64,000 bases of DNA from Bdellovibrionales bacterium (GCA_018266295.1 JAFEAQ010000006.1:1-64000); one strand, 5' to 3'. Positions 5,340 through 14,512 are shown, counted from the stretch's first letter. Made by a program: numbers and translations. Notes: a model not told the origin generated them from the letters alone.

Positions 5340-5825
5340 ATGAAAAAGATTTTAGTATCAACGATCGTTCTCGCGGCATCATATGCTCTGGCTGCGGATC
5401 CAGCACCGGCTCCGGCACCAACCATTGTCGGCAATTGGAATTTAACTTCACGCGCTTGCACAAGCAACGCCCCCATCAATGACGGCGTAAAAATCGGCAC
5501 TGATACAGTGAAAGTTGAAAACAAAGGCGACAACACTTTCAGCTATGTGACTAATATCGGCGGGTGCGAAACAACCGTGACAGGGACTTACGCTGCCGAC
5601 GGCATGAAAGTGGACTACACAACGGCGACAAGCCAAAGCTGCAAAGATACAGCTCCGGCTCCGATGGTTGAAACAATGTCCATCTTCTACGCTTACCTGA
5701 GCGATACAGAAGCTGTAACAGTTACCACCGGCGACAAAGCAGCCATGTCCTGCCCTGCAGGCGATGCTCTTATCATGCACTTTGATAAAGACACTGGCGC
5801 GACTCCACCAGCTCCACAACCATAA
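5340..5825 (+). CDS. Secreted beta-rich protein (lipocalin-like in outline)
   Basis: A 161-residue exported protein: signal peptide MKKILVSTIVLAASYALA, a Pro/Ala-rich linker, then a compact domain beginning IVGNWNL. A G-x-W near the start followed by alternating strands (FSYVTNIGGCETTVTGTY, GMKVDYTTATS) resembles small lipocalin or META-like barrels; this is a resemblance only. Four cysteines could form two disulfides. AAGGAGG precedes the ATG at ideal distance. The C-terminal tail PPAPQP is again proline-rich. A perfect 10-bp stem (5843-5852 with 5869-5878) follows the stop and may end the transcript. Confidence 0.7.
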   Translation: MKKILVSTIVLAASYALAADPAPAPAPTIVGNWNLTSRACTSNAPINDGVKIGTDTVKVENKGDNTFSYVTNIGGCETTVTGTYAADGMKVDYTTATSQSCKDTAPAPMVETMSIFYAYLSDTEAVTVTTGDKAAMSCPAGDALIMHFDKDTGATPPAPQP

Positions 5826-5975
5826 TCGCAGCAATCTTGTTTAGAGAAGAGGAGTGCGTTTTAACGAGCCCTCTTCTCTGACTTTCTCGGTCCTTTTTCA
5901 ATTAACTATCAAGACTCCCACTGTTCCCGCTTCTTCTTCCACTTCTTGGCAAGTTCCTCTATACAGTCATCACAT

Positions 5976-6476
5976 ATGTTGAGACTTCTGCGCAAATGGC
6001 ACCGATGGGTTTCCATTGTCATTGCTATTCCATTCTTAATCACGGTTGTGACCGGCATTTTGCTGGCATCCCGTGGTTTTAATACCTGGGTGCAGCCTCA
6101 ATATCCTCCTGTAGATTCTTCTCTGAAAATCAACTTCGACGAAATCCTCGCGGCGGCCAAATCCGTTCCTGAAGCGCAGATTTCCGACTGGAAGGATATT
6201 TCGCAAATCGATATTCGCCCGGGAACGGGCAATATCCGTGTGCGATCTAAAAACATGCTTGAAATTCAAATCGACGGAGCCAACGGCAAAATCATGGGTG
6301 CGAAAACCCGCCGTGTTTCTTGGCTTGTGTCACTGCACGAAGGAGCTGAGTTCGGCCCTTGGATTCGCTATGGGATCTTCTTTCCGAGCGCAATCTGTGT
6401 GTTTTTCCTGCTTTTAAGCGGCGTGGCCGTTTTCTTTCAGCCTTTAATCGCTCGTCGTAAAGCTCAGCACAAATAA
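5976..6476 (+). CDS. PepSY-associated membrane protein, two membrane helices
   Basis: A 166-residue protein with the PepSY-TM layout: a basic start (MLRLLRKWHRWVS), first helix about residues 13-35 (IVIAIPFLITVVTGILLA), a periplasmic PepSY-like domain with strands (QIDIRPGTGNIRVRSKNMLEIQIDGANGK is the typical repeated-strand portion) and a second helix about 132-155. Related proteins often partner siderophore receptors or metal reductases. It lies 16 bases upstream of the GCS2 ligase and probably heads that operon. Neither this ATG nor an upstream in-frame TTG at 5946 has a good ribosome binding site. Confidence 0.65.
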   Translation: MLRLLRKWHRWVSIVIAIPFLITVVTGILLASRGFNTWVQPQYPPVDSSLKINFDEILAAAKSVPEAQISDWKDISQIDIRPGTGNIRVRSKNMLEIQIDGANGKIMGAKTRRVSWLVSLHEGAEFGPWIRYGIFFPSAICVFFLLLSGVAVFFQPLIARRKAQHK

Positions 6477-6492
6477 TTTATAGGAGTTCGCA

Positions 6493-7596
6493 ATGAAGTT
6501 CGCCCAGTTTTCTCCTGAGGAGAAAAAGCGCTTTGCTCAATCATTTCGTTTTGGTCTAGAGTCTGAATACCTTGTGGTCCGTAAAGAGGACTTCACTCCT
6601 CTCTGGCATCAAGATCTGACCTTTGAAACACTGAATGGAATTTTTGAATCCATTTCTCTGGCCGATGTTCCCTCCTGCGAAGGTTTGGATCTAGAGCCAC
6701 CGCAAACGAAACTGATGCCATTTGTTGTTGAGGGCTATCACCTGCCGGATATGGACTTCCACGCTAAAGAAATCCTACCAAAAGGTGTTGAAATTCGCAC
6801 TCCTGTTTGTGACAGCCTCGAGGAATGCCTCCGCGTTCATAAGACTCTGTACACACGACTCAAAGAAGCCATGAATACAAACGGTTATGACTTAGTGGCG
6901 CTGTCTCACCATCCGATGGAATCGCAGTTCTCAGGCCCCCAGAACAAACGCCGCCATGACTACTGGCAGTGGTCGATGGAAGTAATGACAACTTATGGAC
7001 CTGATATTAACGTGAGCCTGCCGCCGGCGCTTGCTGATTTGATTTCTGAAAAAGATTTCGAAGCTAAGATTAACTACTATGGCCCGGCGCTGTCGGCGTT
7101 AAGTGTTGCTTCGCCATTCATGAACGGGGCACCCTGGCAGATCCGTGGCGAACACGGCAAGAGCTTCCGTATGTATAAACGCAGCTACATCGCGCCTCCG
7201 ATTGAGTTCCATCCGACCGAGAAAAACCGCTACGAGTTCAAGGTATTTGATATGCCGAATTCTTTGCGCGAAATCGAAGCGCAGTTTTTGTCGTTCCTGG
7301 CTTTGACTTTGGACGAAGGACTCATGGGACGTGCGACAAAACAAACCCGCATCTATGATTTGGGCCAAGTCGCTCGCAAAGGACTTGCCGCTGAGGAGAT
7401 GAGCGAACGCGCCAAAGAACTTTTAGAGAGAGCGCCGGCGGTTTTACGTGAATGGGGTTATGATCCGAGCGCCCTTGAAGTGTTTACGGAGCGTCTGGCC
7501 TCTGGAAAAACTCCGGCGGATGAAATGCTAGAGATTTACAGCAAAAACAATTCGATTTATGACGTTCTTCGCGAGCGCAGCCGTTTCAGAGTGTAA
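6493..7596 (+). CDS. GCS2-family carboxylate-amine (glutamate-cysteine-type) ligase
   Basis: Probably joins the gamma-carboxyl of a glutamate-like acid to an amine with ATP. At 367 residues it has the length of the GCS2/YbdK family. Visible marks are the family's opening FRFGLESEYLVV at about 18-29 (metal-binding Glu), GVEIRTPVC at about 97-105, ALSHHPME at about 136-143, and RGEHGKSFRMYKR followed by RYEFKVFDMPNS, the ATP/metal-binding sheet. AGGAG precedes the ATG. The next gene starts one base after the stop, so both are surely cotranscribed. Whether the product is gamma-glutamylcysteine or another amide cannot be told; no glutathione synthetase is adjacent. Confidence 0.75.
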   Translation: MKFAQFSPEEKKRFAQSFRFGLESEYLVVRKEDFTPLWHQDLTFETLNGIFESISLADVPSCEGLDLEPPQTKLMPFVVEGYHLPDMDFHAKEILPKGVEIRTPVCDSLEECLRVHKTLYTRLKEAMNTNGYDLVALSHHPMESQFSGPQNKRRHDYWQWSMEVMTTYGPDINVSLPPALADLISEKDFEAKINYYGPALSALSVASPFMNGAPWQIRGEHGKSFRMYKRSYIAPPIEFHPTEKNRYEFKVFDMPNSLREIEAQFLSFLALTLDEGLMGRATKQTRIYDLGQVARKGLAAEEMSERAKELLERAPAVLREWGYDPSALEVFTERLASGKTPADEMLEIYSKNNSIYDVLRERSRFRV

Positions 7597-7597
7597 A

Positions 7598-8767
7598 ATG
7601 CAACGACTTAGCTTTGAGCTCCTTGAAGACCTCTCTTCGGGAATTCTTTTAAAGCCTGCGATCGCGGACCTCCGAACATTTATGTTTGAGTCCGCGCGCC
7701 GCCGTCGTGGACTTTTGCCGGTGAAGGTCGCCGCCGTCACTGGCAGTGCCGGAAAAACCACCGTCAAAGAAATCCTCGGGCATCTTCTGAAGGGCGCTTT
7801 TATTTCACCGGCTAATCAAAACACCAAACTGGCTTTGGCCCTGCAGATTCTGCGCTTACCTGAGGAACAATCCACGGCGGTATTTGAAATCGGTGCGCGC
7901 CGCCTGGGGGATTTTCAAACTCCTTTAAGTTATGTGCGCCCTGATGTTGTGACTTTGCTGAATATTGGCCGCGCCCATGTCGGCGAATTCGGCTCGCTGG
8001 AGAATCTGATTCTTGAAAAGCTCTCACCTCTGAGTTTTGAAAGTGTCCATACGTTGGTGATTCCTGCCGAGGATGACCGCATTACGAAGCATGCCCGCGC
8101 CCAAGGTAAAAGCCTTATCACGTTTGGTACAAACCCCGCGGCCGATATTGAACTCATCCGCGAAAGTGCCGACGGCGTTTATTTAAAAATTCGTAAAGAA
8201 AGCGTCTTTATCGAATGCCCTTTCCGAGGCCCACAAAAGGGTCTCAATATCGCGGCGGCGATAGCAACCGTTGTCGCCCTTGGAGTTCCCGTTCAAGATA
8301 TTACGCGCCGACTGACGGGCTTTCGTGGAGTTGAAAGACGCTTTCAAGCCTTTAACTGGCAATCGCGTTTAGCCATTGATGATGCGTTTAACGCAAGTCC
8401 CGAAAGCATGCGCGAAGGGCTTCGTCACTTGCTGACACAGACAAAGAATATGAAGATCCTGCTGGTGCTAGGAACCATGCTAGAACTAGGCTCCTCTTCC
8501 GAGTCTGAGCACAGAAAATTGGGCACCTATATCGGCGCCGTGTTTAGTGAGACCATCGCCGCGGGCCTTCTGACACTGATAACTGTGGATGCTGAAGCCC
8601 GGTTTTTGACTGAAGATAACGCTACTGGCCTGCCAAAAGAAAGAATTCATCACTTTGCAACGGCGCTTGAGGCAAAAGCCACCGTGGAATCCCTGGCCAA
8701 GCAGGCCGATGTGGTCTATTTTAAAGCTTCAAAGGGAATTCAGCTGAATAAGATCTTCAGCTCATAA
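7598..8767 (+). CDS. MurF-like Mur ligase lacking the usual N-terminal UDP-binding domain
   Basis: An ATP-dependent amide ligase of the Mur family, 389 residues. MurF-type marks run in order: P-loop GSAGKTTVKE at about 48-57, NQNTKLALALQILRL, EIGARRLGDF, NIGRAHVGEFGSL with ILEK (carbamylated-Lys region), IDDAFNASPESM, LVLGTMLELG and YFKASKGIQL. Standard MurF is about 450 residues with an N-terminal domain gripping the UDP end. Here the P-loop comes after fewer than 50 residues, so that domain is shortened or absent and the substrate is probably not the normal UDP-muramyl tripeptide. Start ATG at 7598, one base after the GCS2 stop; the in-frame upstream extension lies inside that gene. Confidence 0.75.
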   Translation: MQRLSFELLEDLSSGILLKPAIADLRTFMFESARRRRGLLPVKVAAVTGSAGKTTVKEILGHLLKGAFISPANQNTKLALALQILRLPEEQSTAVFEIGARRLGDFQTPLSYVRPDVVTLLNIGRAHVGEFGSLENLILEKLSPLSFESVHTLVIPAEDDRITKHARAQGKSLITFGTNPAADIELIRESADGVYLKIRKESVFIECPFRGPQKGLNIAAAIATVVALGVPVQDITRRLTGFRGVERRFQAFNWQSRLAIDDAFNASPESMREGLRHLLTQTKNMKILLVLGTMLELGSSSESEHRKLGTYIGAVFSETIAAGLLTLITVDAEARFLTEDNATGLPKERIHHFATALEAKATVESLAKQADVVYFKASKGIQLNKIFSS

Positions 8768-8769
8768 TT

Positions 8770-10152
8770 ATGACGACAGCGGCTTTTTACACTCAGCATT
8801 TCGGTAATTGGCAAATTCTTGGCGCTTTTGTTTTTATCGCCATTGCGATTGCCATCTCTCGCTTTTTTAAACTGAATTTGGGCAAAGACCTTTTCATCGC
8901 CTCCCTACGCACGATCGTACAACTGATAGCAATTGGCTACATTCTTCGCTGGCTTCTGCATGCGGACTCTTTACCGACGAATTTACTCACTCTCTTGGTG
9001 ATGACTCTTGTGGCGGCCCAGGCCTCTTACTCCCGCTTAAAAGAAAAAACCTGGCGGATCTATCTAGCAAGCTTTGTCGCCATCTTCGCAAGTGTTTGGC
9101 CCCTGGGATTCCTCACGATTCAGCTATTCTTTGGTGGCGAAGCGTTCTTGCAAAGTCTGTTCTTTATTCCCTTTATGGGCGTTCTGATGGGGAATGCCCT
9201 TTCGGCGATTTCTCTTAGCTTTGTCGGTCTTGAACGGGCCCGCCGCGAAAGTCTTTTAGAAATTGAAACAATGAAGGCTCTCGGGGCAACAGCATTTGAG
9301 GCTTGTCACCGGCTTTATAATGAAATCCTTCGCAATGCTTTAACACCGATGATTAACGGGATGACCATTGTCGGGATCGTGAGTCTTCCGGGCGTGATGT
9401 CGGGTCAACTGATTGGCGGCGTAGATCCTTTACTGGCAGCGCGTTTCCAGATTCTGGTGATGTTCATGATCACCTTTACGGCAATGCTCGGCGCACTGGC
9501 CGCGATTTTTATTACGCATTTCTATTTTATGCCGGCGTGGTTACTGCAAAAACCAGAAGGATTGTGTTTTAGTTTTGCTCCCGGAGAAAAAGTTCTGCTG
9601 CGCGGTCCTTCGGGCGTCGGCAAAAGCCGTTTGCTTAAATCCTTGGTGGGTTTAGATGTCGCCGACTTTTACACCCATATCGCCTTGCCTGCGAACTTGG
9701 AGCTGTCTAAAGTCGATGCCGGTGCTGTGATGTATGTGCCGCAGAAGGCTTACTTTGTGCCTGGAACGGTGCTTGAGAATCTGCAATACCCGCTTCGTTT
9801 TAAAAAACATCGCGGCGAGACTCTAAATCTAGAATTCTTTCAAAAAAACTTTATCAAGCTCGGCATGACGACTGAAATGCTTCAGAAAAATGCCATGACT
9901 CTTTCAGGGGGCGAAGCACAGATTGTGCATCTCCTCCGAAGTCTGCAGTTTGATCCGCAAACTCTTTTGCTCGATGAAATCACGGCAGCCCTTGATAACG
10001 AAAGAACGGCTTTGGTTGAATCTTTTCTTAAAGATTGGGTGGCCAGTAAAGCAGACCGCCGATTGGTATTTATCAGCCACCGTCAAGAACAAGGCACGAG
10101 CCTCGCAAGCCGCATCCTCACTTTTGAACCCGGCAAATTACTTCTGAATTAA
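8770..10152 (+). CDS. Fused FetB-type permease and FetA-type ATPase, ABC transporter
   Basis: A 460-residue fusion. Residues 1-260 are a permease of the FetB/UPF0014 family with about seven membrane helices and the family segment MKALGATAFEACHRLYNEIL (about 170-189) followed by LPGVMSGQLIGGVDP. Residues 265-460 are an ABC ATPase: Walker A GPSGVGKS, signature LSGGE, Walker B TLLLDEITAALD, H-loop FISHR. In Escherichia coli FetA and FetB are separate and export iron; the fused form would assemble as a homodimer. It starts two bases after the MurF-like gene, so it may export that pathway's product or a metal. Its 3' end overlaps the convergent response regulator by 15 bases. Confidence 0.85.
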   Translation: MTTAAFYTQHFGNWQILGAFVFIAIAIAISRFFKLNLGKDLFIASLRTIVQLIAIGYILRWLLHADSLPTNLLTLLVMTLVAAQASYSRLKEKTWRIYLASFVAIFASVWPLGFLTIQLFFGGEAFLQSLFFIPFMGVLMGNALSAISLSFVGLERARRESLLEIETMKALGATAFEACHRLYNEILRNALTPMINGMTIVGIVSLPGVMSGQLIGGVDPLLAARFQILVMFMITFTAMLGALAAIFITHFYFMPAWLLQKPEGLCFSFAPGEKVLLRGPSGVGKSRLLKSLVGLDVADFYTHIALPANLELSKVDAGAVMYVPQKAYFVPGTVLENLQYPLRFKKHRGETLNLEFFQKNFIKLGMTTEMLQKNAMTLSGGEAQIVHLLRSLQFDPQTLLLDEITAALDNERTALVESFLKDWVASKADRRLVFISHRQEQGTSLASRILTFEPGKLLLN

Positions 10153-10824
10153 AAAGCGATAGCCAACACCGGCTTCGGTCGCAATAAGTTCCGGACTGTC
10201 TGCAGAACCTTCCAGCTTCTTACGGATTTGGCCCATATAGACACGCAAATACTGCGTATGTTCTACGGAGTTTGGGCCCCAGACTTCCTTGAGCAACATT
10301 CTGTGAGTCACCACTTTACCGGCATTTTTAACAAGCACCTGCAAAAGGCTGAACTCGGTTGCAGTGAGTTTCACTTCGCTGCCGCCAATTTTTACGATAT
10401 GACCGGCAAAATCCATTTCAAAATCACCGCTTTTAAAAACGGCTTCTAACTGTGTGGGTTGCGAATGACGAAGAGCCACGCGAATGCGCGCCATCAGCTC
10501 AGGAACACTAAAAGGTTTTGTCAGATAGTCATCAGCCCCGGCATCCAACGCCTGGACTTTGTCATCTTCAGAATCTTGGACGGTTAAAACAATGATAGGA
10601 ATCTGTGACCACTCACGAACTTTCGTGATGACGTCCTGGCCATTCATGTCCGTCAGGCCCAAGTCCAAAATAATAAGATCCGGTTTTCTGCTGGCGACTT
10701 CTCGAATGCCCTCATGCCCGCTTGCGGCCTCATGAACCTCAAACTGCTGGGCCTCAAGACTAATCCGTAAAAATTTACGGATCGAGGACTCATCGTCGAT
10801 AACTAAGATGACTTTGGATTTCAT
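10138..10824 (-). CDS. Second KdpE-like response regulator (OmpR family)
   Basis: 228 residues: a receiver with acidic pocket DDE at about 10-12, phospho-acceptor Asp in LIILDLGLTD at about 56, Thr/Lys switch residues (LTVQDS, LTKPF), and a winged-helix DNA-binding domain (VKLTATEFSLLQVLV, VWGPNSVEHTQYLRVYMGQIRKKLE, GVGYRFL). The VWGPN..E..YLRVY segment is shared with the KdpE encoded at 11136-11837, so it is a paralog. It lies downstream of the kdp operon and just after the 36-residue membrane peptide on the same strand, which suggests a second output of KdpD or a separate K+ response. No second sensor kinase is nearby. Confidence 0.85.
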   Translation of the reverse strand: MKSKVILVIDDESSIRKFLRISLEAQQFEVHEAASGHEGIREVASRKPDLIILDLGLTDMNGQDVITKVREWSQIPIIVLTVQDSEDDKVQALDAGADDYLTKPFSVPELMARIRVALRHSQPTQLEAVFKSGDFEMDFAGHIVKIGGSEVKLTATEFSLLQVLVKNAGKVVTHRMLLKEVWGPNSVEHTQYLRVYMGQIRKKLEGSADSPELIATEAGVGYRFLIQK

Positions 10825-11135: not shown

Positions 11136-11837
11136 TTAAGACTGGGACTCAATCTGAGTCAGTCGATATCCCACCCCCGGCTCCGTCACTATGAGCTCAG
11201 GATTAGAAGGGTCGGCCTCAATTTTCTTACGGATCTGAGTGATATAAACACGCAGATAGTGGGATTGCTCAACAGCATTAGGCCCCCAGACCTCCAGAAG
11301 AATTTGGCGCTGAGTGACGAGTCTGCCGGCGTTTAAAGCCAACAACTTTAAAAGATTATACTCTGTCCCAGTGAGCTTTACGGGCTTTCCATGAACCGAT
11401 ACGGAATGAGCCTCAAAATCGATTTTCAAAGGCCCACTGGCAAAAACCGGAGTTTCATGTTTATGAAGTATATGTCTTTCCATCACGCGAAGACGTGCAA
11501 GGAGTTCTGGCAGATGAAATGGTTTCGTCAAATAGTCATCAGCCCCAGCATCTAGTAGCTCAACCTTTTCATCATCGGAGCTTTGCGCTGTCAAAATAAG
11601 AACTGGCACTTTCGACCATGAACGAATCTTACGAAGGACTTCTTTTCCTGAGTGATCCGGCAAACCTAGATCTAAAATAACCAAATCCGTTTTTTGCTCA
11701 GAAAGAATTCTTAGCCCTTCTTGAGCATTCTCCGCTTCCAGTACTTGATAGCCTTTTTCCTGCAATGCTAAATGCAAATACTTACGAATAGGATTTTCAT
11801 CATCAACAATTAAGATCCGGCGATCGGGATGGTTCAT
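11136..11837 (-). CDS. kdpE: Response regulator of the kdp operon
   Basis: DNA-binding regulator that activates kdpFABC when phosphorylated by KdpD. 233 residues from the ATG at 11837: receiver with RILIVDDENPIRKYL, phospho-acceptor in LVILDLGLPD, LTAQSS and LTKPF switch regions, then an OmpR-type winged helix (VKLTGTEYNLLKLL, VWGPNAVEQSHYLRVYITQIRKK, EPGVGYRL). Its ATG overlaps the kdpD stop in an ATGA, which fixes this start over an upstream in-frame one and implies translational coupling. A probable binding site lies upstream of kdpF at 19072-19099. Confidence 0.92.
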   Translation of the reverse strand: MNHPDRRILIVDDENPIRKYLHLALQEKGYQVLEAENAQEGLRILSEQKTDLVILDLGLPDHSGKEVLRKIRSWSKVPVLILTAQSSDDEKVELLDAGADDYLTKPFHLPELLARLRVMERHILHKHETPVFASGPLKIDFEAHSVSVHGKPVKLTGTEYNLLKLLALNAGRLVTQRQILLEVWGPNAVEQSHYLRVYITQIRKKIEADPSNPELIVTEPGVGYRLTQIESQS

Positions 11838-14512
11838 GAATTTTCCCCGAGAACTTGCGGCATTGGCTCTATCGGCAAGCAAATAACAAACTCAGCTCCG
11901 CCCGCGCTGCTGTTTTGAGCCTCAATCGTTCCACCGTGAGCCTCCACGAGACTCTTCGCGATAAAGAGTCCTAATCCGGTTCCTCCGGCCTTAGTGCCTG
12001 GGACGCGATAGAATTTCTCAAAAACCTTCTGAAGAGCATCTAAAGGCAGGCCGGGCCCTTCATCGCGCACTCTAATAACGACCAAGTCCATATCCCGATA
12101 AACCGTGAGATGAATAGGGCTCCTCTCGGGAGTGTAAGCAACAGCATTCAAAATCAGATTTGCAAAAACTTGCTCTAAGAGGCGGTAATCAATTTTTATG
12201 AGTGGCACGTCACCAAAATTATAATCGATATGATGATCACCAAGATCGCCATTCAGCCGCTTCACTGTCAGTTTTAAAAGCTCGCGCACATCATACCAAT
12301 CTTTTTTAAGACTCAACATCCCTGAGTTCAGACGAGTCATGTCCAAAAGATTTTCAATCACTCGGTTCAAGCGATGACTTGCGCGCACAAGTTCCTCGGA
12401 AAGCTCTTTACGCATTTCTGGATTTTCTTGAACCTTCGCATCCGACAGCGTGGAGGCCGAACCGATAATGGTCGTTAATGGAGTCCTCAGTTCGTGAGAA
12501 ACCGAATTCATGAGTGCCTGATGCAATTTTTCGGACTCACGCAAACGATCATTGGTCTTTGACTTCTCCTCAAGGGCTTCGCGTTCAAGCGCAATCGCAA
12601 CCTGATTACCAACAGTAAAGAGTAAATTCTCATGATCGATACCGAGGCGCTTGATTCTTTTTGGCTTAAAGACGATCAAACCGACCGAGCCTTCGAAGGT
12701 TTTCATTGGCAAATAGAAGTTTCGCGAAGAGGGCAGATTGTCCGTCGACCACCCCGCCGCTTTCTCATTTTCAAATGCCCAGAGAGCCACGGCTTGCTCT
12801 TTTTCGGAAAGCTGCATGTATTCAGAAGAGATAACATTGAAATCCAATTTCTCGGTTGTGCCTTTCAGAATAAATCCACAATTCCCTTTAAGGATCCCTG
12901 ACAATTGCTCCGCCACTTTGGAAAGGTAAACTTCCTTACCGCCACCGGCAGCAATATCTTTTGTAATTTGATAGAGGAACTGCGTTCTTTCTTCACGCTC
13001 TTGAAAAATTCTTTCGTGCTTGCGGATTCTATATGTCAGATAGCCGGTTGTGACTGCGACGAAAAAATAAGAGACGCAAAGAAGAATGTCTTCCACCGAA
13101 GAAATCGCAAAGGTGTACTTTGGCGGAATAAAGAAGAAGTTCCATAACAGACTGCTTAAGGCCGCAGCAAACAGCACCGGCCCTAATGAAAAAATCAAAC
13201 TCAACCCGAGAATCGCCAAGAGGTATATAAATCCGATACTCCGGAATCCTAAGAACCCGCTCGTAAAATTGGCGAATATCGTTACACCCACCATCATCCA
13301 GAAGACATACCAATACTGAATCCAGGCAGAAAGATTTGAAAACTCAGGCATCCACCGGCGCTCTGTTTCAGGAGGAGTCTCTTGACGAATAACATGAACA
13401 TCGAACTCGCCGGTTTGCCGAACGAGCCGATCCAGGACCGTTCCCCCTTCAAAGTGATCACGCAAAAAGCGCTGGGTGGGGCGGCCAATAATCAGTTGCG
13501 TGACATTACGCTGTTTAGCGACTCTCTGGAGGGCTTCAGTGACATCAATATCTGGTACTGTCACCACTTCAGCACCAAGCTCGCGAGCAAGGCTGAGATT
13601 CTTGCTAAGCTGCGCTTGATCGGCATTATTGAGAGCTTCCCCCGTATCGACGTGAATCGCCATCCACGGAGCTTCCAAGTTAAAAGCATAACGGCGTGTG
13701 GCTCGAATAAGACGCTCTGAATAGGGCGAGTGGCTGACCGCGACCATGAGGCGTTCATTGGTATTCCAAGGTCCTTCGGAGCCATGCAGTTTGCTATAAT
13801 CCTGAAGATCGTAATCGACTTTTTCCGCCGTAAGACGTAAAGCAATTTCGCGCAAAGCGGACAGGGGCGCTTCTTTAAAGAAATTCTGCGCAGCCCGCTC
13901 CGCCCGCTCTTCAAGATAAACCTTACCTTCACGGAGACGCTTTAAGAGTCCCGCCGGAGTGATATCAATAAGCTCAATATGATTGGCTCTTTCGATGATC
14001 GAGTCAGGCACAGTTTCACGAATAGAAATGCCGGTGATCTTTTCAACAGAGTCCTTACGGCTTTCAATATGCTGAACATTGACAGCTGTATAGACATCAA
14101 TTCCCTCTTCGAGGAGCTGCAAGACATCTTGATAGCGCTTTGGATGCAAAGTTCCGGGAGCATTTGTATGCGCGAGCTCATCGACGATGACCAGTTTTGG
14201 ACGGCGCTTAAGAATAGCGTCTAAATCCATTTCCTGAAGCTCGGTTCCGCGATAGTTGATTTTCTTTCTAGGAATGAGTTCGAGCCCTTCTAAAAGCTCG
14301 GCCGTTTCACGACGACCGTGAGTCTCGACGACACCAATCACAACATCAACGCCATCTTCCTTGGCTTCATGAGCAGCCTCGAGCATTGCGTAGGTTTTAC
14401 CTACGCCGGCGGACATTCCGAAGAAGATCCGCAATTGCGCCGTTGCTTTGACATTTTCTGATTTAACGATATCAAGCAACTCATCAGGATTGGGTCGTTG
14501 TGAATCAGGCAC
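11834..14512 (-). CDS. kdpD: Osmosensitive K+-responsive sensor histidine kinase
   Basis: Inner-membrane sensor kinase/phosphatase for KdpE. 892 residues, full family length. In order: N-terminal KdpD domain with P-loop GMSAGVGKTYAML (about 32-44) and VIVDELAHTNAPG, a universal-stress-like domain (about 250-370, LMVAVSHSPYSERLIRATRR), four membrane helices (about 395-500, DUF4118), a GAF-like domain (about 520-650), phospho-acceptor His in NSVSHELRTPLTT, and an ATPase domain with NLILNAVAYTP, DEGPGLP and GTGLGLFI. It starts with GTG, overlapping the kdpC stop by one base. The fusion order is the classic KdpD one. Confidence 0.95.
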   Translation of the reverse strand: MPDSQRPNPDELLDIVKSENVKATAQLRIFFGMSAGVGKTYAMLEAAHEAKEDGVDVVIGVVETHGRRETAELLEGLELIPRKKINYRGTELQEMDLDAILKRRPKLVIVDELAHTNAPGTLHPKRYQDVLQLLEEGIDVYTAVNVQHIESRKDSVEKITGISIRETVPDSIIERANHIELIDITPAGLLKRLREGKVYLEERAERAAQNFFKEAPLSALREIALRLTAEKVDYDLQDYSKLHGSEGPWNTNERLMVAVSHSPYSERLIRATRRYAFNLEAPWMAIHVDTGEALNNADQAQLSKNLSLARELGAEVVTVPDIDVTEALQRVAKQRNVTQLIIGRPTQRFLRDHFEGGTVLDRLVRQTGEFDVHVIRQETPPETERRWMPEFSNLSAWIQYWYVFWMMVGVTIFANFTSGFLGFRSIGFIYLLAILGLSLIFSLGPVLFAAALSSLLWNFFFIPPKYTFAISSVEDILLCVSYFFVAVTTGYLTYRIRKHERIFQEREERTQFLYQITKDIAAGGGKEVYLSKVAEQLSGILKGNCGFILKGTTEKLDFNVISSEYMQLSEKEQAVALWAFENEKAAGWSTDNLPSSRNFYLPMKTFEGSVGLIVFKPKRIKRLGIDHENLLFTVGNQVAIALEREALEEKSKTNDRLRESEKLHQALMNSVSHELRTPLTTIIGSASTLSDAKVQENPEMRKELSEELVRASHRLNRVIENLLDMTRLNSGMLSLKKDWYDVRELLKLTVKRLNGDLGDHHIDYNFGDVPLIKIDYRLLEQVFANLILNAVAYTPERSPIHLTVYRDMDLVVIRVRDEGPGLPLDALQKVFEKFYRVPGTKAGGTGLGLFIAKSLVEAHGGTIEAQNSSAGGAEFVICLPIEPMPQVLGENS

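What the first reader, a model, noticed from the sequence alone, without database searches (positions are those of the whole stretch)
6493..10152. GCS2 ligase, truncated MurF-like ligase and fused transporter in one operon
Seen: three genes with one- and two-base spacing encode two ATP-dependent amide-forming ligases of different folds and a fused permease-ATPase, preceded by a PepSY-type protein. Known: GCS2 makes gamma-glutamyl bonds; Mur ligases add amino acids to a carboxylate. Inference: they build a small gamma-glutamyl or peptide-like metabolite, perhaps a metal-binding or redox compound, and export it. No such pathway is known to me in this combination.
Basis: partly seen in the sequence, partly recalled or inferred. 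Interest (0 to 1): 0.8.

Follow-up and report, generated by a model that had tools for sequence, protein, structure and literature searches.

The report
Gamma-glutamyl ligase operon with metal-reductase gene
A family of small gene clusters in predatory-type bacteria pairs a distinctive gamma-glutamyl-bond-forming enzyme with a membrane haem-type protein, often an iron-export-type pump, and an exchangeable second peptide-bond enzyme, which together look like an undescribed system for making and using a small metal-handling or redox molecule.

Summary
In detail: PepSY_TM (5976-6476), divergent GCS2 ligase (6493-7596), MurF-like ligase without the N-terminal domain (7598-8767) and a fused UPF0014 permease-ATPase (8770-10152) run in one direction with gaps of 16, 1 and 2 bases. 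It is not a one-off. The GCS2 clade occurs in 30 of 369 genomes of the phylum. A PepSY_TM gene adjoins it in 25 and lies within about 3 kb in 3 more. FetB/FetA genes adjoin it in 15 genomes (counting one contig-edge copy), in three separate FetB lineages. The second ligase is exchangeable: MurF-like in 7 genomes, a cyanophycin-synthetase/GshF-type ATP-grasp ligase in 4, a second GCS2 in 2, none found in the rest. The MurF-like and ATP-grasp clades occur only beside GCS2. Best reading: GCS2 makes a gamma-glutamyl amide, the second ligase extends it as in glutathione synthesis, and the product serves metal (probably iron) or redox handling across the inner membrane with the haem-type PepSY protein; where present, FetAB exports the product or its metal complex. 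Context leans to iron but shows no substrate. No description of the combination was found.

The parts
5976..6476 (+). Short PepSY_TM protein (166 aa; two membrane helices around one PepSY domain; two histidines, H19 and H131 as numbered, invariant in 28 of 28 homologues); probable half-size haem reductase
   Evidence: PF03929 44.9 bits; alignment of 28; FoxB comparison from PMC13038864
6493..7596 (+). Divergent GCS2 carboxylate-amine ligase (367 aa), core enzyme of the system
   Evidence: PF04107 46.1 bits; model pLDDT 84, Z 28.2 to plant glutamate-cysteine ligase 2gwc, 27.1 to YbdK 1r8g; 30 of 369 genomes
7598..8767 (+). MurF-like ligase (389 aa), domains 2 and 3 only; exchangeable second ligase
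   Evidence: PF08245 and PF02875; TIGR01143 224.7 bits, cut-off 288.6; Foldseek best MurF 4qf5; only beside GCS2 in the phylum
8770..10152 (+). Fused FetB-type (UPF0014) permease (residues 14-249) and ABC ATPase (265 onward); Walker A GPSGVGKS, signature LSGGE and Walker B LLLDE present
   Evidence: PF03649 209.2 bits, PF00005 55.8 bits; only UPF0014 copy in this genome

Best explanation
A two-step, glutathione-like biosynthetic and metal/redox-handling module. (1) The GCS2 enzyme joins the gamma-carboxyl of glutamate to an amine (fold and invariant residues shown; substrate inferred, cysteine the default guess). (2) The second ligase activates a carboxylate of that product and adds another amino acid or small peptide: MurF-like here, a CphA/GshF-type ATP-grasp enzyme or possibly a second GCS2 elsewhere (exchange shown; equivalence of reactions inferred). 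(3) Where present, the FetB-FetA pump moves the product, or its metal complex, to the periplasm (linkage shown; substrate inferred). (4) The PepSY_TM protein, half of a FoxB-type reductase, dimerises, binds haem and passes electrons across the membrane to reduce the metal complex or the exported compound (invariant histidines shown; activity inferred). Overall role: probably iron handling, otherwise periplasmic redox.
For: Linkage: PepSY_TM directly beside GCS2 in 25 of 30 genomes, within about 3 kb in 3 more. FetB co-occurs with GCS2 in 19 of 30 genomes against 17 of 339 others (Fisher p 9e-15, not corrected for kinship), adjacent in 14 plus G163 at a contig edge; other FetB genes sit beside unrelated genes. 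FetB tree: adjacency in three lineages, at least two label changes forced by well-supported branches. Second ligase: MurF-like hits at 482-619 bits in 7 genomes, all beside GCS2, next hit 187 bits; ATP-grasp hits at 584-626 bits in 4, all beside GCS2, next 186; the ATP-grasp clade groups with the MurF-bearing G001 in the GCS2 tree (99/92), which suggests replacement. That ATP-grasp type matches CphA and GshF ATP-grasp domains; GshF uses it to add glycine to gamma-glutamylcysteine (PMC9427784). Metal context: in G182 GCS2-FetB-FetA continues into Peripla_BP_2, FecCD, a second permease and ATPase genes; a 26-bp identical block holding a 15/19 Fur-box match lies upstream in G286/G287 while the flanks have diverged; known PepSY_TM members are ferrisiderophore reductases with haem-binding His (PMC13038864); FetAB is described as an iron exporter (PMC5719062, PMC6338753).
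Against: No substrate or product is shown. FetB is absent altogether from G030, G002, G212, G001, G035, G029, G005, G059, G011 and G206, so export by FetAB cannot be essential. No Fur-like site found in 22 of 24 promoter stretches, including the window's. Most metal-uptake neighbours occur in one or two genomes only. Peripla_BP_2/FecCD systems also carry haem or cobalamin (general knowledge). UPF0014 transporters are not only iron exporters (STAR1-STAR2 is linked to UDP-glucose; PMC6168647). G011 and G182 have no PepSY_TM gene nearby.
Confidence: 0.45

Rival explanations
1. Soluble low-molecular-weight thiol pathway: GCS2 plus second ligase simply make glutathione or a close analogue for the cytosol, and the membrane genes are incidental.
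For: GCS2 model closest to glutamate-cysteine ligases; GCS2 plus GshF-type ATP-grasp in four genomes equals the GshF domain set; the window genome has no gshA (PF04262), no other GCS2, only a weak 45.6-bit GSH-S_ATP match, yet eight GST_N_3 hits.
Against: GST hits occur in all 12 genomes tested whether or not they carry the system; G286/G287 have strong GSH-S_ATP matches (177-180 bits) and still keep the system; it does not explain PepSY_TM in 28 of 30 or recruitment of FetAB in three lineages; the patchy distribution is unlike a housekeeping thiol.
Confidence: 0.2
2. The gamma-glutamyl compound is the cytosolic electron donor or shuttle for the PepSY_TM haem protein, as ascorbate is for cytochrome b561; FetAB only supplies it to the periplasm in some lineages.
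For: PepSY_TM is the most constant partner, including genomes without FetB; the donor of the PepSY_TM reductase FoxB is stated to be unknown (PMC13038864).
Against: No direct evidence that the product reaches or reduces the haem; the ascorbate analogy is from general knowledge.
Confidence: 0.15
3. Metal detoxification: the product chelates excess cytosolic iron or another metal and FetAB expels the complex, lowering oxidative damage.
For: FetAB/YbbLM in enterobacteria is linked to iron, nickel and peroxide resistance (PMC5719062, PMC6338753); a di-haem CCP_MauG gene overlaps PepSY_TM in G149 and G175.
Against: A reductase beside it and a FecCD-type importer in G182 point rather to acquisition; FetB is absent in many members.
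Confidence: 0.1
4. Cell-wall function: the MurF-like enzyme makes or recycles a peptidoglycan peptide, with GCS2 as an unrelated neighbour.
For: Closest fold and sequence match is MurF.
Against: A full-length murF with the N-terminal domain is elsewhere in the genome; the MurF-like gene follows GCS2 in all seven genomes that hold it and its place is taken by an ATP-grasp ligase in others.
Confidence: 0.05

Closest known systems
GshF and GshA/GshB glutathione synthesis
   Same: A GCS-superfamily ligase followed by a second ATP-dependent ligase; the ATP-grasp version in G035, G059, G005 and G029 has the same two domain types as GshF
   Different: GCS2 belongs to a divergent clade outside the YbdK and GshA models; the second ligase is MurF-like here; linked to PepSY_TM and FetAB; product unknown
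YbdK family carboxylate-amine ligases
   Same: Same fold (1r8g Z 27.1) and superfamily PF04107
   Different: TIGR02050 42.5 bits against cut-off 176.4; YbdK-like copies with strong PF04107 scores occur elsewhere in relatives such as G006 and G030
FetAB (YbbLM) and plant STAR1-STAR2/ALS3
   Same: UPF0014 permease with a small ABC ATPase
   Different: Fused into one chain here; fixed beside GCS2; TIGR00245 137.6 bits against cut-off 410
FoxB-type PepSY_TM ferrisiderophore reductases, CrpH
   Same: PepSY_TM family with invariant histidines on both sides of the PepSY domain
   Different: Half size: two helices, one PepSY domain, two histidines, so it would need to dimerise
Cyanophycin synthetase CphA
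   Same: Uses an ATP-grasp domain and a Mur-ligase domain, the two enzyme types that alternate as second ligase here
   Different: Here they are separate, alternative proteins of 320-460 aa paired with GCS2; the Mur enzyme is MurF-like rather than MurE-like

Membership tests
GCS2 superfamily (PF04107) | Match above gathering score and glutamate-cysteine ligase fold | tested here: met
   46.1 bits against 21; 2gwc Z 28.2 over 310 residues, 2.9 A
GCS2 superfamily (PF04107) | Gamma-glutamyl amide ligase activity | not testable with these tools
   needs an enzyme assay
YbdK family (TIGR02050) | Curated score 176.4 bits | tested here: not met
   42.5 bits
MurF | Mur ligase domains 2 and 3 with P-loop and conserved lysine position | tested here: met
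   PF08245, PF02875; G49, K53, E97, H127, K141 invariant in seven
MurF | Curated score (TIGR01143, 288.6) and N-terminal UDP-substrate domain | tested here: not met
   224.7 bits, match starts at profile position 54; N-terminal residues absent
MurF | The murF of its genome | tested here: not met
   Separate murF-type gene at G000:C8:278128 with the N-terminal domain
UPF0014/FetB plus FetA | UPF0014 permease and ABC ATPase with intact motifs | tested here: met
   PF03649 209.2 bits, PF00005 55.8 bits; motifs read
FetAB iron exporter (TIGR00245) | Equivalog score 410 bits | tested here: not met
   137.6 bits
FetAB iron exporter (TIGR00245) | Iron export | not testable with these tools
   needs a transport assay
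PepSY_TM | PF03929 above cut-off, invariant haem-type histidines | tested here: met
   44.9 against 28.8; two histidines in 28 of 28
FoxB-type reductase | Four helices, two PepSY domains, four histidines in one chain | tested here: not met
   166 aa, matches profile positions 1-157 of 295; half of the unit
Glutathione synthesis | GshA (PF04262) and GshB homologues in the genome | tested here: not met
   No PF04262 hit in 12 genomes; GSH-S_ATP only 45.6 bits in the window genome

The most novel reading that the evidence does not exclude
A new class of ligase-made gamma-glutamyl metallophore or electron shuttle with its own pump and a minimal dimeric haem reductase, in which lineages exchanged the second ligase (MurF-like, ATP-grasp, GCS2) to alter or keep the product. 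If the compound is also the electron donor of the PepSY_TM protein, it would answer which molecule feeds this reductase family.
Probability: 0.3. Interest if true: 0.82.

Novelty: new variant of a known kind. Interest (0 to 1): 0.62.

Why it matters
It points to an undescribed small-molecule pathway that can be tested with four genes, in a phylum of predatory and environmental bacteria whose metal acquisition and thiol metabolism are little known. It ties a FetAB-type pump, whose substrate range is not settled, to a biosynthetic enzyme in three FetB lineages, and a PepSY_TM haem-type protein, whose family's electron donor is unknown, to the same enzyme. It also shows a MurF-like ligase recruited out of cell-wall synthesis and exchanged with an ATP-grasp ligase.

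Tried and rejected
Fur-box scan of 24 promoter stretches: only the sister pair G286/G287 stood out; alignment of promoters within other groups gave no shared block that I would call a regulator site. Searching plasmids by tblastn: no match. The genome-collection scan found only four loci, from Bdellovibrio-type or unassigned bins; its patterns come from one sequence, so absence in other phyla is not shown. A profile search of solved structures by sequence gave only weak plant GCL matches in the C-terminal stretch, so the fold was checked by model instead. Considered that FetAB is a chance neighbour of the window only: rejected. Considered that the MurF-like gene is the genome's murF: rejected. 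Considered glutathione as product because the genome lacks gshA/gshB but has GST domains: weakened because GST domains occur regardless. Literature searches found no report of the combination; only openly licensed papers are held.

Full report
What is in the window. PepSY_TM ends at 6476, GCS2 runs 6493-7596, the MurF-like gene 7598-8767 and the fused transporter 8770-10152, all on the + strand, with 16, 1 and 2 bases between them. Pfam places them in the stated superfamilies, but GCS2, MurF-like and FetB all fall below the curated cut-offs of the YbdK, MurF and FetB models, so each is a divergent member.

The enzymes look intact. The GCS2 model (six sequences, pLDDT 84, pTM 0.88) matches plant glutamate-cysteine ligase bound to a transition-state analogue (2gwc, Z 28.2, 310 residues, 2.9 A) and YbdK (Z 27.1). 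Across 28 rows, 57 residues are invariant, among them G21, E23, E25, R102, H140, N173, E238, R246 and E248; which of these bind ATP or magnesium was not mapped here. The MurF-like model (three sequences, pLDDT 81) has MurF as its nearest solved fold, and the P-loop, the E97, H127 and K141 positions and the N-S-P-E-S block are kept. It lacks MurF domain 1; relatives G002, G207 and G196 keep a remnant in which the TDTR motif of the genome's own MurF reads TDFN or TDLS. A UDP-linked substrate is therefore unlikely (inference). The genome has its own murF elsewhere.

Relatives. The window lies in a 4.2-Mb genome; named relatives of its GCS2 gene are two Bdellovibrio bins, one unassigned bacterium bin and one Deltaproteobacteria bin. 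A GCS2 profile finds 30 of 369 genomes of the phylum at E <= 1e-60, in four families, patchily. I fetched the surroundings of all of them and classified the neighbours by profile.

Constant partner. A PepSY_TM gene is directly beside GCS2 in 25 of the 30 and in the same neighbourhood in G167, G168 and G135; none was found near GCS2 in G011 and G182. Two histidines are invariant in 28 of 28. [quoted passage not shown] CrpH needs its periplasmic histidines (PMC13038864; see also PMC11334425). The protein here is half of that, so a haem-bearing homodimer is my inference.

Transporter. FetB/FetA stand beside GCS2 in 14 genomes (window, G207 and G196 fused; eleven of a distant family as separate genes, with FetA cut off or undetected in two) and in G163, where only the end of GCS2 is on the contig. 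FetB occurs over cut-off in 36 of 369 genomes and in 19 of the 30 GCS2 genomes (Fisher p 9e-15, ignoring kinship). Sixteen further FetB loci were fetched; apart from G163 none that could be read has a GCS2 beside it (L121 could not be read). In a FetB tree the GCS2-adjacent genes fall in three places: the fused clade, a clade of eleven, and G182 among stand-alone genes. Repeated association argues for a functional link. FetB is wholly absent from many GCS2 genomes.

Exchangeable second ligase. MurF-like genes of this clade exist in seven genomes and always follow GCS2; the profile then drops from 482 to 187 bits, to ordinary MurF. In G035, G029, G005 and G059 the place is taken by a 322-330 aa ATP-grasp protein whose best models are cyanophycin synthetase and GshF; it too exists only there (584-626 bits, then 186). 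In G029 the pair is split over two contig ends. In G286/G287 a second, more diverged GCS2 precedes the main one. The GCS2 tree puts the ATP-grasp clade with MurF-bearing G001 (99/92) next to the other MurF-bearing genomes (94/93, not starred), which fits replacement of one ligase by another. The ATP-grasp module of GshF adds glycine to gamma-glutamylcysteine and is akin to the CphA domain (PMC9427784). By analogy the second ligase here extends a gamma-glutamyl product.

Metal context. In G182 the operon GCS2-FetB-FetA runs on into a periplasmic binding protein, FecCD-type permeases and an ATPase. In G149 and G175 a di-haem CCP_MauG gene overlaps the PepSY_TM gene. In G002 and G212 a periplasmic solute-binding protein precedes it. 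G286 and G287 share an identical 26-bp block with a 15/19 Fur-box match in an otherwise diverged promoter, and G286 has a ZIP transporter gene nearby. These are single or few cases, so iron is the leading but not the shown metal.

What is shown and what is inferred. Shown: gene identities, predicted folds, linkage, exchange of the second ligase, repeated linkage with FetAB. Inferred: gamma-glutamyl product, order of steps, export, haem binding, metal. Not known: amino-acid substrates, metal, regulation in the window's own genome (no Fur-like site), and distribution outside this phylum.

Comparison. It works like a glutathione-type two-ligase pathway coupled to a transporter and a reductase, but it is not a member of the GshA/GshB, YbdK, MurF or FetAB-equivalog families by the tests listed. 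I found no description of the combination, within openly licensed papers only.

Noticed in passing
window 10138-10824 and 11136-11882 (- strand): Two OmpR/KdpE-type response regulators, 53% identical, stand in tandem after the KdpD-type kinase gene (11834-14512) of a kdp locus; the first meets the fused transporter tail to tail with a 15-base overlap.
   Followed up: partly
L055 (G005) 8422-9626: The GCS2 gene of G005 is broken into two frames while the ATP-grasp and PepSY_TM genes beside it are open; decay or an assembly error.
   Followed up: no
L090 and L092, upstream of PepSY_TM (about 5200 and 8710): A 26-base identical block in a diverged promoter between divergent genes resembles a Fur site; it could serve either gene.
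   Followed up: partly
L091, L100, L102, L106: GCS2 and PepSY_TM accompanied by a roughly 460-aa secreted protein and small secreted proteins or lipoproteins of about 120 aa without a clear family; possible extra parts of the system in lineages without adjacent FetAB.
   Followed up: partly
G000 whole genome: Eight GST_N_3 matches but no gshA, no second GCS2 and only a weak glutathione-synthetase match; glutathione may come from outside or be replaced by another thiol.
   Followed up: partly
L053 (G011) 5468-9149: In G011 the GCS2 gene stands alone, followed on the same strand by a type III glutamine synthetase about 390 bases downstream.
   Followed up: no
G010, G214, G024, G030 and others: Long open frames of about 900 aa that match the ATP-grasp profile, probably cyanophycin synthetases, occur patchily in the phylum.
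   Followed up: no
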